Shown here one piece after another: positions 1 to 62,742 of a stretch of DNA of 64,000 bases. Under the pieces are notes generated by a model, which was not told where the DNA came from, ran no database searches, and saw nothing but the letters and a program-made list of their open reading frames with translations. The stretch lies in contig JASANH010000873.1 in the NCBI GenBank assembly GCA_030248295.1, forward strand, positions 62,001 to 126,000, written 5' to 3'. The first letter of the stretch is position 1. Each line of letters starts with the position of its first letter. The DNA comes from Mesodorylaimus sp. YZB2_4 (Eukaryota; Nematoda; Enoplea; Dorylaimida; Dorylaimidae). Both the position numbers and the translations under genes were made by a program.

Positions 1-1174
1 TGAGTCTAAAAACGGAGCAACGGCGCGAAGAGCTGTGAATCTTCTTAGGCTGGAAGCACGCTTCAATAAACAGGCATAAAAGGTATTTGGGCCGCGGTTG
101 TCAAACAGAGCTCGGCCAATAAACGACGCCGCCCGCTTAGTGGATTCTGATCCCTAAGCTGGTAATGAGGGGCCTGGCCAGACCGCTTCTCTGTTTTGGC
201 TCACAAAAGTGGCGTGCTTCCATAATCGACACCTCGCTCGAACGCTCTGTAGATCCTTTGCGGATGCGGATTTAGATTAAGGGAATGCGCTGGCCACTAT
301 CTGTTTATGGGAGAGGTGAATATCCAAATTAGTGGGCGGCATGTTTGATGGCAAGTACTGTATGACAAAGGACGAACCCACGGCATTTCGAGTGGTCACC
401 TTTGGCACATGGAATTTGGAATACGAAAGCCTTTCTGCGATTCCTGCGCTTGCACTCTACTCTTAGGCCAGAATTGATGATCTTGTATGCACGCCTACCA
501 GACGGGCTACTGGGTCGGTACAAAAGTAACTGTGAGGTAGAGCATGACTAGTCTGCTACTGCCACTCGACCTTGCTGTTACCTGGTGCGGAACTAGCTGG
601 TTGGCACACAGCATTGACAAGGAGACTGCCTTGAAACTCTGGTGCCAAGAATGCAATCTGGGAAGAAATGAATGAGCATGCGTGTACAAGATGCCAGTGT
701 GTCGCAACAGATTCGATGCCTACTCTTGTACTCGAACTTCGGTACATGGTTTCACTAGTTCGGTAATTTGAAACAAGGCCAACCACTTGTCGTTTATTAA
801 ACTGGTGACTGTGGTAATCTATGGGCACACAGTTAGAGTTTCAAACAGACATAAGAATTTGACGTAGTAATATTCAGATGACATTCTCGCAAAAGGCAGT
901 CCAAGGACTAACACAAAACATCACGCACGCTCGAACTTTTGTCGCCTTTTTCTTCACTACGCTGATTTCCATGTCCTTGGAGCGTAGGATGCAAATACAA
1001 TAGGGATAGGATGTGCCTGCCATAACTTACTTGCACTGGAAACTAGAAAGAAAGTCCGACTTACTACCCGTCACCCATGCAAATCATGGTCGTGTCAATT
1101 ATGAGTTGGTTAGTGCACGGCTTGTACAGTAGGTCGAAAGAAATGGTAAGACTTGGCCGACAAAGCATAAAAGT
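1..1174. other. No gene recognised
   Basis: Only short open frames with no family resemblance on either strand. I see no tRNA, rRNA or clear exon chain here. Confidence 0.5.
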
Positions 1175-1368
1175 GTAACCAGGCCTGGCAGGCGTAGAAG
1201 GGAGGCGGCCGACCGAAGTCGGCGGGACTAAAACTCCGACTGGAGCAGGATAGTCTTGCGACTATACCTACGGCTGAAACATCAACCCGAGGGGTTGACG
1301 TTTCTCAGCCAGGGGAGAGTATCGATTACTCTCTCCCACTCGCCATGGCCTACCAGGCGGGGGGTTAC
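1175..1368 (-). ncRNA. Candidate multibranched structured RNA (five hairpins in a closing stem)
   Basis: The ends pair: 1175-1180 with 1363-1368, then 1183-1188 with 1353-1358, then 1190-1193 with 1348-1351, with one mismatch and one internal loop. Inside are five hairpins in a row: 1208-1223 (6 bp, perfect), 1234-1245 (4 bp), 1250-1265 (6 bp, perfect), 1272-1310 (long, interrupted) and 1312-1336 (10 bp). Read on the minus strand, 1208-1223 is closed by C(UUCG)G and 1250-1265 by the GNRA loop GCAA, the two most stable RNA tetraloops; this is why I assign the minus strand. I do not recognise the family. It could be a free-standing RNA gene or the structured end of a retroelement. No second copy was seen in the window. 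Confidence 0.45.
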
Positions 1369-2365
1369 AAAAGTGATAGACCGCAAGGGATGCATGCTCC
1401 CCGCAAACAGTTTTAGCGACCTCCTCTAGAAAATTACTCCATTTGTTTCCCTTCGTCTCACAATCAGAATCGAAAGAGCAAATCTAGCGCAGAGGAGGAG
1501 AATGCGCTTGGCCTTGTCCCTTTCACCCCGATAACAACCACAATTTCTTCGAGTATGTTCACCTCAACCCTTTCGGCAATTTAGTGCTTCCTTGGCCCTC
1601 AGACCTCCTCAATTACAAAGTTTGGTTCAGGACTATTTGAAAATTGTTGGCTATATTTTCTCAACTAAGACGCGGGCCATATTCTTTAAAAACTTTTGCA
1701 CGAGGAATAGTACTTTCGAAAAGAATCTCACAGCATATTGTGGTTACACCACCTCAGTAACACACATAATAAAACCTGCAAGTTTTCAGTCCACCCAAAA
1801 TCCACTTTTTGAAGTAACCAATGAAGTTAGCGAAGAGCAAGTTACATCCAGAACGATTAATAAAAGTGTATCAGGCGCATGCATACCACACACAAAGTGC
1901 ATGCACAGAGCGCGGCACACCAACATGGTATTCGGCGGCGGCCCCAGGACCGGGACTTATTTAAGGTGGGCACAATCGCACATTTGCGCATTCCTTTGCC
2001 CCTAGTTCAAGCATTTTTTTCCACGTCGACTCCCAACTTAAGCCAAGAGCAAGTTTAAACAGACCACAGGTACAGTGCAAGGTACCATTTATGATACAGA
2101 GATGCTCTTGATCATGGTCGTTGTATAGCCAGCCATAACGTGTGCTTGGGAGTCACTCTCTGTGCAATGTCACACAACCTCTTTCCTGTTCTGTTTGAAA
2201 ATTTTATGCCCCCACTCAAATTAGTTGGTCGAAATCGAAAGTCATGTCTCCCCCGGAGATATATTCGAGGATATACTGTACTTGAGTTAAATTCGCGCCT
2301 TGTAGAAAAATTCGAAATGAGCATTTTATCTTACACTCATCAGTTCTGCATCGAAGCGTCACTCA
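1369..2365. other. No gene recognised
   Basis: An open frame of 137 codons at 1592-2005 (+) resembles no family known to me and has no supporting exon neighbours. Nothing else is seen. Confidence 0.45.
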
Positions 2366-2530
2366 TGTCGTGTCATGTCATGTCATGTCATGTCATGTCA
2401 TGTCATACTTTATCCATAGCCAAGCACTATACAGCGCACTCGAGGGCTTAGGAACGCAATAAACGACAATCATGTTGTACCGAGGTGGGAGTCGAACCCT
2501 TCCCGGTAAGTGCGGTGTATAATGCTGGCT
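2366..2530 (-). repeat. tRNA-derived SINE, family A, with pentanucleotide tail
   Basis: The minus strand carries a B-box-like GGTTCGACTCCCACC at about 2486-2500. At the other end is a pure TCATG/ATGAC pentanucleotide run (2366-2405). The stretch next to the run (tatccatagcc, cagcgcactcgag) recurs at 50630-50670 beside the same pentamer, so this is a dispersed family whose tail is (ATGAC)n on the minus strand. Confidence 0.6.
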
Positions 2531-3867
2531 TTTCTAACCTGCTGCTCAGTAAAATTGGGAGTCGGATCTTGGGATCCGGGTGTGCCTGGACTTTGAGACC
2601 CAGTCTGGAAAATCACGAATGATAGGCTGCGTTTTGATCTTTCCAAAGCAGTGTCTTCTCATGTAATGGGTGGTGTGGCGGGCACTAATCCAGGCGGCCA
2701 ATTCATTATAGTTAACAGTCAGCAATTAACAATTAGCATGACATCGCATAAAGTGAGGATACTGTAGGATCATCGAATTCTGGTGACTGTTTGATCAGGA
2801 TATTGCGTAGATGGTATCTGGCCCAGTATATACTAGCTCATCAAAGGGTCCTCAATGAAGCAACTCTGCAAGTACCCGGAGAGCTAAGTACACTGGGTTA
2901 AAACATTTCAAAATCTGTGCAAGGCGTCCTACCTGTGCTTGTGTGAGTCTATGCTACTAGCTGATGTAACACACTGCCGTTCTGGGTCTCGGTTTGATCC
3001 ATGGTCAGCGTAAGTGAATGGGTGAGTGGTTCATGAAAGAGCCTTCTAAATAGGTGCGTTGGTCAAGAACGGTGGCTGAGGTACCTAGAGTATCCAGACT
3101 GACCACTCCTTGACTCACTGTTTAGGGACGGAAACTCTGGAACTACTTGCCCTCAAGTGTTGCAAGATGTAAGAAGCTTTGACCATCATCATAAGTAATT
3201 TCAAAGCAGTGCATGCACACTGTTAGATGCAGGCGGATGCTAAAAAAATCTGTGATATGACATAAATATATAATTGAGCATTCAGTTTGAATTTACCACG
3301 CTTAAGAATAAGAGTCTGTACCTGAACATCACTAGTTGCCATGATTACTAGTGTGCGTCAGCAAAGCAAAATTGGGGTGTCGAACCACGTGAGTAGGTTG
3401 GTTTATTCATGCCAGTCAAATCCTTGTTTCGCGGTCGGAAGTATTGTGGTACGGAAGCGTAATCGATTCAGCAACATTTGCTAGCCCGGACGGCGTGGCT
3501 TTTTTTGTGGTTTTTGAAGGCATGCCGATAAAAATCATTTTGCGAAATTTCAGCCATCTGGAAGCGAGAGTGGATTGGAAAGCTTGCTTAAATTCGTCAT
3601 TGATCGCCATGCTACCAGCTTCCGAATTATTGAGAGACACGTTCGAACTTGGCCTATTCGAAATGCAAAGTTTAAATCTATTTCCGCTGGTTTTAAGACA
3701 CTAAATAAAAAAATCATAGTGGTCGCATCCTCCACTCTTTTCGTCTTTGGGAATTCAGTTTTTCTCCGATTTACAATCTCTTTTGCTTCTGTTCTGTCAT
3801 TAAGCGGCTAGTAACTGGTATACCTATCGAAGTGATACCAGCGATTCGCAAGAAGTCAACTTTCAAA
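2531..3867. other. No gene recognised; presumed upstream region of MAF1
   Basis: No conserved exon seen. A B-box-like GGTTTGATCC near 2990 hints at another decayed tRNA-derived repeat, too weak to call. The segment just before 3868 would hold the MAF1 promoter and 5' UTR, but no clear core promoter element is visible. Confidence 0.4.
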
Positions 3868-58924: not shown

Positions 58925-59345
58925 ATGATAGCGGCCGCGGTGATGCAGCGATGCGGTATTCGTATTGCTTGGGAGCGAGTGACTGGACTCGTCCCGGGTT
59001 CGATCCCCGGTGACGGAGGTCGGTTTGCGAACCATGAACCCTCGCTGACTTTGCTCGCCAGGTCGTGGGTGACTCACCCGGCGCCGCTGAGGTGCTCCGA
59101 GTGGAGACGGAAGCCAAACGAGGAGACAGTCTTGGCTGTCCAGCAGACAGGGTTCAAAGCCAGCCCCCATCGTCCGAGGAGTCGATGTCCAGTCCAGGAT
59201 GCCCCCGCGTGGAGGTGCTCCTACTGTAGAGGAGACACGCAGAGGGAAGCTGCTGTGTGTGCTGGTCCCCGCACAGTCTTGCTTATAAGGTTTGACTGCT
59301 GGCCGGCTTTAGGCAAAAGCGGGCTTCGGCCCACCAAAATTAATG
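58925..59345 (+). repeat. tRNA-derived SINE, family B, full length
   Basis: The head has an A-box-like TGATGCAGCGATGCGG and a perfect B box GGGTTCGATCCCC at 58997-59009. The body contains GTCGTGGGTGACTCAC and AGGTGCTCCGAGT, and the 3' block ends GGCAAAAGCGGGCTTCGG. The body is shared with 18515-18815 and 14788-14905. Confidence 0.8.
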
Positions 59346-59656: not shown

Positions 59657-59997
59657 TGGCATAGTAGTATAGGAGCGATTGGATCACCGTTACTCCTCCA
59701 GGTTACCCAGGGTGGAGGAGGTCAAGACAGCCCGCCCTTAGCCACCGTCCATTCCAGGCTCACGGGTCATTACTGACCCAGCCAATGACCATATCGGCGG
59801 TACTCACTGCCCATACCCAGTATCATCCATGTGATTACATGATTGACACATGTCAAATTCAAATCCAGCTTAAGTGACGCTTCTATGAAGCGGCGAGGTT
59901 TTTTGAATTTCCCGCCTTCACGTATAAAGGGCCTGTTATGTCTGCTATGTTGCGCCAATTTGAAAGTGACAACAACATGTCTTCGAAACCTACAGCG

Positions 59998-60530
59998 GAG
60001 CAGCTCGGAGCTGCTCATTTTGTGGCAGGAGCAGCTCCTCCTTGGTGGGGAGCAGCTCGGAGCTGCTCATTTTGTGGCAGGAGCAGCTCCTCCTTGGTGG
60101 GGAGCAGCTCGGAGCTGCTCATTTTGTGGCAGGAGCAGCTCCTCCTTGGTGGGGAGCAGCTCGGAGCTGCTCATTTTGTGGCAGGAGCAGCTCCTCCTTG
60201 GTGGGGAGCAGCTCGGAGCTGCTCATTTTGTTGCAGGAGCAGCTCCTTCTTGGTGGAGAGCAGCTCGGAGCTGCTCATTTTGTGGCAGGAGCAGCTCCTC
60301 CTTGGTGGGGAGCAGCTCGGAGCTGCTCATTTTGTGGCAGGAGCAGCTCCTCCTTAGTGGGGATCAGCTCGGAGCTGCTCATTTTGTGGCAGGAGCAGCT
60401 CCTCCTTGGTGGGGAGCAGCTCGGAGCTGCTCATTTTGTTGCAGGAGCAGCTCCTCCTTGGTGGAGAGCTGCTCAGAGTTGCTCATTTTGTTGCAGGAGC
60501 AGCTCCTCCTTGGTGGGGAGCGCAGCACTT
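59998..60530 (+). repeat. Left-arm tandem array, 10 copies of 52 bp
   Basis: Each unit contains GAGCAGCTCGGAGCTGCTC (a perfect palindrome around one base), then ATTTTGT, then GAGCAGCTC again. Because 52 is not a multiple of 3 and no frame has a stop, open frames run through the array and rotate through three repeated peptides; these are not genes. Confidence 0.9.
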
Positions 60531-60697
60531 TGGTAGCAGGAGTAGCTCCTACTTTGTGGGGACCTTTCCATTTTATGAGGTGAGCGGCAAATGTGAGAGC
60601 ATACACCATGCCAGTTTCCTACAAATCCAGTCAGGGCGTTCACTTTTTACCTTAGGCGGCTTTACTTCATGGTCCATGTTGCACTTATAAGCCTACA

Positions 60698-60906
60698 ACC
60701 CCGCTCATATTAGCGGGGGAGCTGCTCATGTTAGCGGGGAGCTGCTCATGGTAGCGGGGAGCTGCTCATGTTAGCGGGGGAGCAGCTCATGTTAGCGGGG
60801 AGCAGCTCATGGTAGCGGGGGAGCTTCTCATGTTAGCGGGGGAGCAGCTCATGTTAGCGGGGAGCAGCTCATGTTAGCGGGGAGCAGCTCATGTTAGCGG
60901 TGGAGC
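60698..60906 (+). repeat. Left-arm inner array, about 10 copies of ~20 bp
   Basis: Units of the type GAGCAGCTCATGTTAGCGGG, with GAGCTGCTC in the first copies, so the 9-mer is shared with the 52-bp units. Confidence 0.85.
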
Positions 60907-61034
60907 AATCACTGCCCTGATGCCTTCATATATTCTTCCTCATATGAATGTGAAGAGAGGGCTAACTGCCAAGTGACGATAAAAGGCAACAGTTTTGTTG
61001 CATCTGCCAGTTTCATATTTTTTCGAGTTGGCGA

Positions 61035-61675
61035 ATGGTTCGGTTTGGATTACTCTCGAAAATGGTCAACGATAACGATAGCTCGTCTGGCGAGAATGGC
61101 GACGATGAATGCACAAAATGTGACAAGACATTTTGTTCGAAATATTCATTGAGGCGTCACATGAAATCTGTTCATGGAAAGCGAGCGCGGACCAGTACTG
61201 TTGATGGTAGCAAGGATGGTGGTAGCGAAGAAGCGGATGGCGGCGGAGACAATGACGATGACGATGAAATAGAACCATCCAATAAAATTTGGCGGACATT
61301 CTTGAAACGGATCTTGCGTAATTGGAGGGAAGATGATGATTTTCAAACGCCAGAAACGGAAGATGATTTTCTAAACCTCAAAGATCAAGTCCGAGAGGAG
61401 TTGTACAGTCAAACGGTCAAACTTTTAACGACTACAATGCACTGGTCGATTCTCCAATATATAAAAAGATTCGAGTCACTGAAGATCGCCTATTACAATT
61501 GATGGATGACGAAGATAGTGATGATCAGCAAGAAGCCTTCCAAACGGCCTTCGATCAGAGGAAAACATTGCTATTGAATTTTTTGAATGACAACCTAGAT
61601 GTAGTTGAAAATTATGCGGAAACATCAGACAGTGGAGAGGAAGATGGAGAAGAAGAAGAAGAGGACAGTGATTAA
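61035..61675 (+). CDS. Transposon-borne C2H2 zinc-finger protein with acidic regions
   Basis: The first frame, 61035-61502, encodes an acidic leader, one C2H2 finger (CTKCDKTFCSKYSLRRHMKS then VH; C-x2-C-x12-H-x4-H, about residues 30-52), a long Asp/Glu stretch, then a predicted helical part with WRTFLKRIL. A second frame continues without stops to 61675, ending in a Glu/Asp tail. The switch near 61430-61500 is either a frameshift or a small intron that I could not place. An AATAAA follows. It is the only gene in the element. It may bind the repeated sites in the arms; that is inference. Similar one-finger acidic proteins are common around Polinton-type elements in my recollection, not verified here. 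Confidence 0.65.
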
Positions 61676-61759
61676 TCCACCCAACTGATTTTATAAAACT
61701 ACTGTGCACAAACATTAATACCTTGATATTCAATCATGATCAATATTTATGTTTCTTTT

Positions 61760-61765
61760 AATAAA
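61760..61765 (+). promoter_or_regulatory. AATAAA polyadenylation signal of the zinc-finger gene
   Basis: Canonical hexamer 85 bp after the second-frame stop and just before the right-arm array. Confidence 0.6.
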
Positions 61766-61782
61766 TAGCTACTCACCTGCTA

Positions 61783-61858
61783 ACATGAGCTGCTCCCCCG
61801 CTAACATGAGCAGCTCCCCGCTACCATGAGCAGCTCCCCCGCTAACATGAGCGGGGTT
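61783..61858 (-). repeat. Right-arm inner array, about 4 copies of ~20 bp
   Basis: Inverted counterpart of 60698-60906, with fewer copies. Array length therefore differs between arms although the unique parts match. Confidence 0.85.
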
Positions 61859-62036
61859 GTAGGCTTATAAGTGCAACATGGACCATGAAGTAAAGCCGCC
61901 TAAGGTAAAAAGTGAACGCCCTGACTGGATTTGTAGGAAACTGGCATGGTGTATGCTCTCACATTTGCCGCTCACCTCATAAAATGGAAAGGTCCCCACA
62001 AAGTAGGAGCTATTCCTGCTACCAAAGTGCTGCGCT

Positions 62037-62402
62037 CCCCACCAAGGAGGAGCTGCTCCTGCAACAAAATGAGCAACTCTGAGCAGCTCTCCACCAAGGA
62101 GGAGCTGCTCCTGCCACAAAATGAGCAGCTCCGAGCTGCTCCCCACCAAGGAGGAGCTGCTCCTGCCACAAAATGAGCAGCTCCGAGCTGCTCCCCACCA
62201 AGGAGGAGCTGCTCCTGCCACAAAATGAGCAGCTCCGAGCTGCTCCCCACCAAGGAGGAGCTGCTCCTGCCACAAAATGAGCAGCTCCGAGCTGCTCCCC
62301 ACCAAGGAGGAGCTGCTCCTGCCACAAAATGAGCAGCTCCGAGCTGCTCCCCACCAAGGAGGAGCTGCTCCTGCCACAAAATGAGCAGCTCCGAGCTGCT
62401 CC
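62037..62402 (-). repeat. Right-arm tandem array, 7 copies of 52 bp
   Basis: Inverted counterpart of the left array, with seven units instead of ten. Units are nearly identical to those on the left, including variant units next to the inner unique segment. Confidence 0.9.
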
Positions 62403-62742
62403 GCTGTAGGTTTCGAAGACATGTTGTTGTCACTTTCAAATTGGCGCAACATAGCAGACATAACAGGCCCTTTATACGTGAAGGCGGGAAATTCAAAAAA
62501 CCTCGCCGCTTCATAGAAGCGTCACTTAAGCTGGATTTGAATTTGACATGTGTCAATCATGTAATCACATGGATGATACTGGGTATGGGCAGTGAGTACC
62601 GCCGATATGGTCATTGGCTGGGTCAGTAATGACCCGTGAGCCTGGAATGGACGGTGGCTAAGGGCGGGCTGTCTTGACCTCCTCCACCCTGGGTAACCTG
62701 GAGGAGTAACGGTGATCCAATCGCTCCTATACTACTTGGCAT

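What the first reader, a model, noticed from the sequence alone, without database searches (positions are those of the whole stretch)
59657..62742. Mini-Polinton carrying only a zinc-finger gene and reiterated palindromic sites
Seen: 6-bp duplication TGGCAT, ends 5'-AG, nested inverted repeats, and one C2H2 gene. Known: Polintons/Mavericks make 6-bp dupl­ications and have 5'-AG termini. Inference: a non-autonomous derivative that has discarded polymerase, integrase and capsid genes but kept or captured a DNA-binding protein. A small element that carries its own site-binding factor rather than a transposase would be an unusual strategy and might be an undescribed group.
Basis: partly seen in the sequence, partly recalled or inferred. 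Interest (0 to 1): 0.85.

Follow-up and report, generated by a model that had tools for sequence, protein, structure and literature searches.

The report
Small Polinton rider with zinc-finger gene
A 3-kb piece of mobile DNA has the ends of a large virus-like transposon (a Polinton) but none of its enzymes; it carries one zinc-finger gene and dozens of evenly spaced copies of a short palindrome, and looks like a satellite that borrows its big relatives' machinery and end sequences.

Summary
A 3,074-bp element (59663-62736) sits between perfect 6-bp duplications (TGGCAT). It starts AGTAGT, ends ACTACT, and has long nested inverted repeats around one C2H2 gene. It belongs to a recently active family: the gene matches about 40 contigs of this 145-Mb genome. 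The 8 non-autonomous elements whose two ends were read, and one 15-kb relative (C225), all have perfect 6-bp duplications (9 of 9). C225 and three one-ended relatives carry Polinton-type genes, and the end motif is the published Maverick (AGT)2//(ACT)2. So the Polinton reading holds: a non-autonomous relative, not a Polinton itself.

New here: (1) a palindrome GAGCWGCTC, 34-103 times per zinc-finger element, absent from the rest of the window and from the Polinton loci read, spaced mostly in whole helical turns; (2) the gene is unbroken in 18 of 24 full-length copies, with weak signs of selection; (3) end sequences differ between copies with near-identical interiors, yet match at both ends of each copy and do not group apart from other Polinton-type ends, as if rewritten from Polintons. 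Binding of the protein to the palindromes is unproven. Best reading: a Polinton satellite with its own array-binding protein.

The parts
59657..59662 (.). left copy of the 6-bp target duplication TGGCAT
59663..62736 (.). whole non-autonomous element, 3,074 bp, AGTAGT...ACTACT
59663..59975 (+). left terminal 313 bp shared with full-length Polintons
62424..62736 (-). right terminal 313 bp shared with full-length Polintons
59997..60521 (+). left 52-bp array; a full unit holds three GAGCWGCTC palindromes at steps of 10, 21 and 21 bp
62034..62402 (-). right 52-bp array, inverted
60545..60700 (+). non-repeated inner arm segment, identical in both arms of the window copy and 99.4-100% in four sister copies
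60703..60907 (+). 20/21-bp array: same palindrome, unrelated spacer
61772..61852 (-). 20/21-bp array, inverted
61062..61675 (+). zinc-finger gene (204 aa in open copies): one C2H2 finger, acidic stretch, helical-looking part (by eye), acidic tail; frame interrupted once in this copy
61760..61765 (+). AATAAA, possible polyadenylation signal after the gene
   Evidence: read; not tested
62737..62742 (.). right copy of the 6-bp target duplication TGGCAT

Best explanation
It is a non-autonomous satellite of Polintons (Mavericks). Shown: the shared terminal ~313 bp, the (AGT)2//(ACT)2 ends, the 6-bp duplications, no recognisable enzyme gene, many near-identical copies, and relatives with the same ends and Polinton-type genes in the same genome. 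Inferred: Polinton polymerase and integrase act on its ends in trans; copying by protein-primed strand displacement keeps both ends of a copy alike and lets a copy pick up end sequence from whichever Polinton replicates beside it. Inferred with less support: the zinc-finger protein, probably as a dimer or oligomer, binds the GAGCWGCTC palindromes, which mostly lie on one face of the helix. The protein-loaded arrays would pair the two arms or concentrate replication or integration on this element, giving an element without an enzyme an advantage in cis.
For: Same ends and 6-bp duplications in 9 of 9 elements with both ends read. C225 relative: 15 kb, CCGATT duplication, ORFs in two converging modules, ATPase with Walker A/B (AAA_22 E 4.4e-5, under the cut-off), weak PolB (E 0.033) and rve (E 0.21) matches, both under the cut-off. 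Relatives of its integrase piece (36-37% identical) overlap places that Pfam rve scores over its cut-off (C268, C682, C851, C476). Relatives of its capsid-like and integrase pieces lie beside over-cut-off PolB in C713; C604 is similar but its PolB is just under the cut-off. C418, C655 and C921 repeat the order end - integrase 2.6 kb inward, with the capsid-like match 4.2-4.5 kb inward in C418 and C921. End motif and 6-bp duplication as published. End rewriting: zinc-finger-type ends as one clade rejected, p-AU 6e-5; C101's ends are 1.3% from Polinton C655 but 3% or more from any other zinc-finger-type end; in five young copies interiors are 98.9-100% identical to the window while the outer 110 bp differ by 2-15%; yet left and right ends within the seven zinc-finger copies agree at 97.5-100% (first 320 bp; 5 of 7 at 99.4% or more). 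Palindromes 34-103 per zinc-finger element, 0 in C225 and the other Polinton loci read; 408 of 438 gaps within 10% of a whole number of turns. Gene: 18 of 24 full-length copies without a stop or frame break; in 15 open copies N/S is 0.57 of neutral (p 0.018) against 0.91 in 6 broken ones.
Against: Protein-DNA binding not shown. Palindrome positions are not more conserved than spacers (0.945 v 0.925, p 0.57). The spacing counts are not independent, because arrays grow by duplication. Selection on the gene is weak and the open/broken split was made after looking: all 23 copies together p 0.084, variants shared by two or more copies p 0.074. C225's PolB is found only in separate ORF pieces, its domain matches are under Pfam's cut-offs, and its capsid-like protein matches nothing in Pfam or the PDB; an active helper was not identified. 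One pair (C57-C150) goes against end rewriting: ends 1.2%, gene 2.1% apart. Ordinary gene conversion could also rewrite ends.
Confidence: 0.6

Rival explanations
1. An ordinary non-autonomous Polinton with a passenger gene: Polinton enzymes move it because it has the right ends; the arrays are foldback-type repeat expansion and the zinc-finger gene is a hitch-hiker with no role in mobility.
For: Palindrome and spacer bases equally conserved; selection signal weak; long internally repetitive inverted ends are known from Galileo, which resembles Foldback (PMC3573991 abstract). A second non-autonomous element without the gene and without arrays (C59, 3,008 bp, duplication GCCGTG) has the same kind of ends.
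Against: All 8 contigs shown in the cut-off list of doubled palindromes also have a zinc-finger match nearby, a degraded one in C46; one palindrome core in two arrays with unrelated spacers, both in helical steps; gene unbroken in 18 of 24 full-length copies.
Confidence: 0.3
2. A transposon of another superfamily with 6-bp duplications or long repetitive ends (Foldback/Galileo-like, GingerRoot, Mutator-like).
For: Long internally repetitive inverted ends resemble Foldback/Galileo; GingerRoot also makes 6-bp duplications.
Against: GingerRoot ends are mostly TA..TA; here (AGT)2//(ACT)2, the Maverick motif, and the full-length relative with the same ends carries Polinton-type genes.
Confidence: 0.04
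3. The zinc-finger protein is a repressor or decoy aimed at Polintons or the host, for instance silencing promoters in the shared ends, and the arrays titrate it.
For: Element-encoded DNA-binding proteins often regulate their own expression (general knowledge); a TATA-like stretch lies in the shared 313-bp end (read, untested).
Against: The palindrome is absent from the Polinton loci read (0 in L038-L044), so Polinton ends are not an obvious target.
Confidence: 0.06

Closest known systems
Polinton/Maverick elements (vertebrate set, PMC8097293, passages read)
   Same: (AGT)2//(ACT)2 ends, 6-bp duplications, terminal inverted repeats (46-1,447 bp there); same-ended 15-kb relative with converging modules
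   Different: 3 kb, no polymerase, integrase, ATPase or capsid gene; carries palindrome arrays and a C2H2 gene; 'zinc' does not occur in that paper's main text
Galileo / Foldback-like elements (PMC3573991 and PMC3688188, abstracts read)
   Same: long internally repetitive inverted ends; a THAP DNA-binding domain with multiple sites in the tandem repeats; exchange of sequences among copies, mainly in the ends
   Different: there the DNA-binding domain is part of the transposase (P superfamily); here it is alone, with different ends and a Polinton partner
CACTA/Spm elements with TnpA and subterminal repeats (recalled)
   Same: a separate element-encoded protein that binds repeated subterminal sites and brings ends together
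   Different: different ends and duplication length; Spm also encodes its transposase
EBNA1 and the family of repeats of EBV, as an analogy only (recalled)
   Same: array of palindromic sites bound by a protein encoded on the same DNA
   Different: no relationship; function here unknown
GAGA factor, a single C2H2 finger that binds GAGAG (recalled; one search gave listings only)
   Same: one finger with LRRH in the helix (finger letters of GAGA factor recalled), and a GAG core in the site
   Different: no homology shown; the comparison is by eye

Membership tests
Polinton/Maverick | 6-bp target-site duplication | tested here: met
   9 of 9 elements with both ends read; reference
Polinton/Maverick | AG-type ends, (AGT)2//(ACT)2 or (AG)3//(CT)3 | tested here: met
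   AGTAGT...ACTACT (reference)
Polinton/Maverick | long terminal inverted repeats | tested here: met
   701 nt at 99%
Polinton/Maverick | protein-primed PolB and retroviral-type integrase encoded | tested here: not met
   only one gene recognised, C2H2; hence filed as a non-autonomous relative, not as a Polinton
Polinton/Maverick | about 15-20 kb, capsid genes and ATPase | tested here: not met
   3,074 bp
non-autonomous derivative of Polinton | ends and duplication shared with a gene-bearing partner in the same genome | tested here: met
   C225 with both ends and duplication; C418, C655, C921 with one end each
non-autonomous derivative of Polinton | interior derived from the partner by deletion | tested here: not met
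   no interior homology to L038-L044; only a 27-bp array-unit match in L037. Not required of every non-autonomous element
non-autonomous derivative of Polinton | moved in trans by the partner | not testable with these tools
   inferred from shared ends and mosaic ends
Galileo/Foldback | P-type transposase in a full-length relative | tested here: not met
   the same-ended full-length relative carries Polinton-type genes
GingerRoot/IS3EU | TA..TA or TG..CA ends with 6-bp duplication (GingerRoot values) | tested here: not met
   ends AG..CT (reference)
virus satellite | packaged in a helper's capsid | not testable with these tools
   none

The most novel reading that the evidence does not exclude
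A satellite class of Polintons that carries no replication, integration or capsid gene but encodes a dedicated single-finger protein which assembles on helically phased palindrome arrays of its own DNA. It uses that nucleoprotein structure to compete for helper machinery in cis, and it renews its ends by template switching onto helper Polintons during protein-primed replication. This would be a genome-resident analogue of virus satellites.
Probability: 0.3. Interest if true: 0.78.

Novelty: new variant of a known kind. Interest (0 to 1): 0.58.

Why it matters
Enzyme-less Polinton relatives with their own gene and binding-site arrays did not turn up in seven searches of open-access papers (four of the result lists were cut, and most papers were seen as listings only). 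If the protein binds the arrays, this is a non-autonomous transposon that invests in a DNA-binding protein instead of an enzyme. The end pattern (alike within a copy, mosaic between copies, shared with Polinton-type ends) may be a genomic footprint of how Polinton ends are copied, and it makes strand switching testable from genome data alone.

Tried and rejected
Interior of the element as a deleted Polinton: rejected, no interior homology to L038-L044; the one match outside the ends is 27 bp of an array unit in L037. Zinc-finger gene from a Polinton: the Polinton loci read carry no palindrome, the protein has no match in L037-L044 better than E 7.1, and no zinc-finger match falls on C225, C418, C655 or C921. 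Relatives in IMG/VR: none; the C225 ATPase also found none there, so that collection says little about such Polintons. Palindromes better conserved than spacers: not so. 'Old fossil' copies as an outgroup for a selection test: failed; those four copies (L082-L085) are 96-99% identical in aligned bases, and three of them have 13-30 small deletions, so they look like unpolished reads rather than fossils. By the same token the single frame interruption in the window copy could be a sequencing error. Direct comparison of C225 pieces with the 20 loci of the Pfam PolB search gave only similarity in the end sequence, with one locus; the link came through. The capsid-like protein of C225 matched nothing in solved structures or Pfam. 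No match to solved structures for the zinc-finger protein better than E 0.026; beyond the finger only weak ones, e.g. E 0.68 for residues 114-190. The host was not identified.

Full report
What is there. The element occupies 59663-62736 (3,074 bp) between perfect copies of TGGCAT. Its arms are inverted copies of 701 nt (99% complementary), with a second, shifted register of 607 nt (98%) that lies in the arrays. Each arm runs: 313 bp of Polinton-like end; a 52-bp array (10.1 units left, 7.1 right); a non-repeated segment; a 20/21-bp array. The centre holds one gene with a single C2H2 finger (PF00096 E 3.2e-6 in the window copy, 5e-6 in copy L031), followed by an acidic and, by eye, helical region. 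No other Pfam domain passed its cut-off; solved structures gave only weak matches, best E 0.026 to single zinc fingers.

It is a family. The window is G000:C8:62001-126000 in an unnamed assembly of 145 Mb. The terminal 335 bp gave 44 matches (40 of 89 candidates scored, so a lower bound). The zinc-finger protein gave 59 matches at E up to 0.1, on about 40 contigs by my count, leaving out the last four, which are weak finger-only matches. Of 24 full-length copies (22 matches over residues 1-204, plus C8 and C124, which match in two frames) 18 have no stop or frame break (counted). Seven copies with both ends and the gene were read (window, L031-L036), and an eighth element without the gene (L037). 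All 8 have perfect 6-bp duplications: TGGCAT, CTGCAC, GCCGGC, GACCTG, TATACA, TCCCAC, TGCGTC, GCCGTG. The remaining ends were not paired, either because the partner was not found or because the stretch was not fetched; C313, C921, C831 and C1066 were read but could not be paired. They are not in this count.

It belongs with Polintons. C225:61308-76302 has the same ends (87.6 and 91.4% to the window's 313 bp) and a CCGATT duplication. Its ORFs include an ATPase with Walker A and B (AAA_22 E 4.4e-5, under the curated cut-off), a piece weakly matching PolB (E 0.033) and one weakly matching rve (E 0.21), both under the cut-off. Capsid-like ORFs were recognised by recall only; the large one matches nothing in Pfam or in solved structures. 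Taken alone these are weak, but the family evidence is firmer. Relatives of its integrase piece, 36-37% identical, overlap places where Pfam rve scores over its cut-off (C268, C682, C851, C476). Relatives of its capsid-like and integrase pieces (36-40% identical) lie beside PolB in opposite orientation in C713 (PolB over cut-off) and C604 (PolB just under). Three more contigs repeat the order end - integrase at 2.6 kb (C418, C655, C921), two of them with a capsid-like match at 4.2-4.5 kb (C418, C921). Published vertebrate Mavericks have (AGT)2//(ACT)2 ends, 6-bp duplications and inverted repeats of 46-1,447 bp (PMC8097293, passages), and 6 bp is given as the Polinton value (PMC10045372, passages).

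What is special. GAGCWGCTC occurs 59, 103, 70, 55, 53, 34 and 92 times in the seven zinc-finger elements, once in the element without the gene (inside a 27-bp scrap of an array unit), 0 times in the rest of the window and 0 in 27 other loci read, Polinton loci among them (L038-L064). The doubled form is found 431 times in the genome; the reversed control 0 times. The 52-bp and 20/21-bp arrays share the palindrome but have unrelated spacers. Start-to-start gaps are mostly 10, 20/21, 31, 42 and 52 bp: 408 of 438 gaps of 9-130 bp (93%) and 71% of 59 different spacers lie within 10% of a whole number of 10.5-bp turns, 20% expected; the best of the periods tried are 10.2-10.5 bp. Some gaps do not fit (25, 27, 29, 38, 13 bp). 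Gaps are not independent, because arrays grow by duplication; the independent part is that a few unrelated spacer kinds all fit. Against a binding-site reading, palindrome positions are no better conserved than spacer positions among 37 different 52-bp units (0.945 v 0.925, p 0.57).

Is the gene used? Against L031, 22 other copies (two of them fragments) carry 111 different base variants: 37 silent, 67 replacing, 7 stops. Variants seen once are near neutral (0.87), those shared by two or more copies lower (0.40; 15 variants, p 0.065). In a second count without stops, 15 open copies (L031 included) give 0.57 of the neutral ratio (p 0.018), 6 broken copies 0.91 (p 0.45), all 23 copies 0.74 (p 0.084) and shared variants 0.42 (p 0.074; in the open set alone 7 variants, 0.30, p 0.11). 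The split was made after looking. One stop variant fell in the open set, where two changes share a codon. This is suggestive only.

Ends are rewritten. Among the five youngest copies (C8, C43, C173, C101, C124) the gene differs by 0.3-0.7%, but the terminal ~335 bp by 1.5-6.4% (10 pairs; indels not counted). The non-coding flanks of the gene and the inner arm segment are 98.9-100% identical to the window in these copies, while the outer 110 bp match at 98 (C43), 94 (C101, over 82 bp only), 89 (C124, inner set) and 85% (C173). Within each of the seven copies the two ends agree over 320 bp at 97.5-100%, five of seven at 99.4% or more. In a tree of 31 ends, holding the 15 zinc-finger-type ends together is rejected (p-AU 6e-5). 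The 15 are both ends of the seven copies (for C124 the inner set) plus C277, whose interior was not read; the 16 others include both ends of C225 and of C59, and ends whose interiors were mostly not read. A single tree is only an approximation if ends recombine. C101's ends are nearest to Polinton C655 (1.3%). C124 carries a second, outer set of end sequence at both ends. The pair C57-C150 does not follow the pattern (ends 1.2%, gene 2.1%). Two matching ends that change together are what protein-primed copying with end repair by annealed strands would give (recalled from adenovirus work); PMC8097293 ties the repeated end motif to jumping-back in such replication (passage). Gene conversion is the rival.

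How it most likely works. Shown: ends, duplications, copy number, lack of recognisable enzymes, co-resident same-ended Polintons, mosaic ends. Inferred: movement and copying in trans by Polinton proteins. Less sure: the zinc-finger protein loads onto the arrays and gives the element an advantage in cis, as Galileo's THAP domain has many sites in its repetitive ends (PMC3688188, abstract), except that here the DNA-binding protein is free of any transposase.

Literature. Seven searches for non-autonomous, mini, satellite, foldback or zinc-finger Polintons or Mavericks and one for TnpA-type systems (no paper) listed no paper whose title or abstract start describes such an element; the lists were cut at 20 of 31, 20 of 27, 15 of 30 and 15 of 24 papers. 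Passages of PMC6431247, PMC2836005, PMC5718144 and PMC4046053 were read as well and mention none. Repbase could not be searched and may hold non-autonomous Polintons.

Changes made on checking: three figures corrected (interior identity, deletion counts, number of searches), the within-copy end identity and the missing Pfam run added.

Noticed in passing
L034 (C124:245400-249400), 282-399 and 3508-3625: This copy has doubled ends: a second outer ~117-bp end segment on both sides, inside one TATACA duplication; possibly a record of end addition during replication.
   Followed up: partly
L037 (C59:374400-378200), 364-3371: A second kind of non-autonomous element with the same ends and a GCCGTG duplication, without zinc-finger gene or arrays (one 27-bp array scrap), sharing short interior pieces with the C225 Polinton.
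   Followed up: partly
L040-L041 (C313:1-18000): Eleven matches to the terminal 335 bp in 18 kb, several next to similar flanking sequence: nested or tandem insertions.
   Followed up: no
L082, L083, L085 (C221, C55, C46): Zinc-finger copies 98-99% identical in aligned bases but with 13-30 small deletions each, not concentrated in single-base runs: probably unpolished long-read stretches of the assembly.
   Followed up: partly
G000 contigs C76, C78, C92, C111, C128, C174, C192, C538: An rve integrase in a very long open frame (1,182-2,917 aa) lies about 400-1,000 bases from the contig start, on the minus strand, in all eight: one retroelement sitting at contig ends.
   Followed up: no
window near 59000: TCGATCCCCGG, reminiscent of a tRNA-derived repeat, upstream of the element; ARAGORN finds no tRNA in the window.
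   Followed up: no
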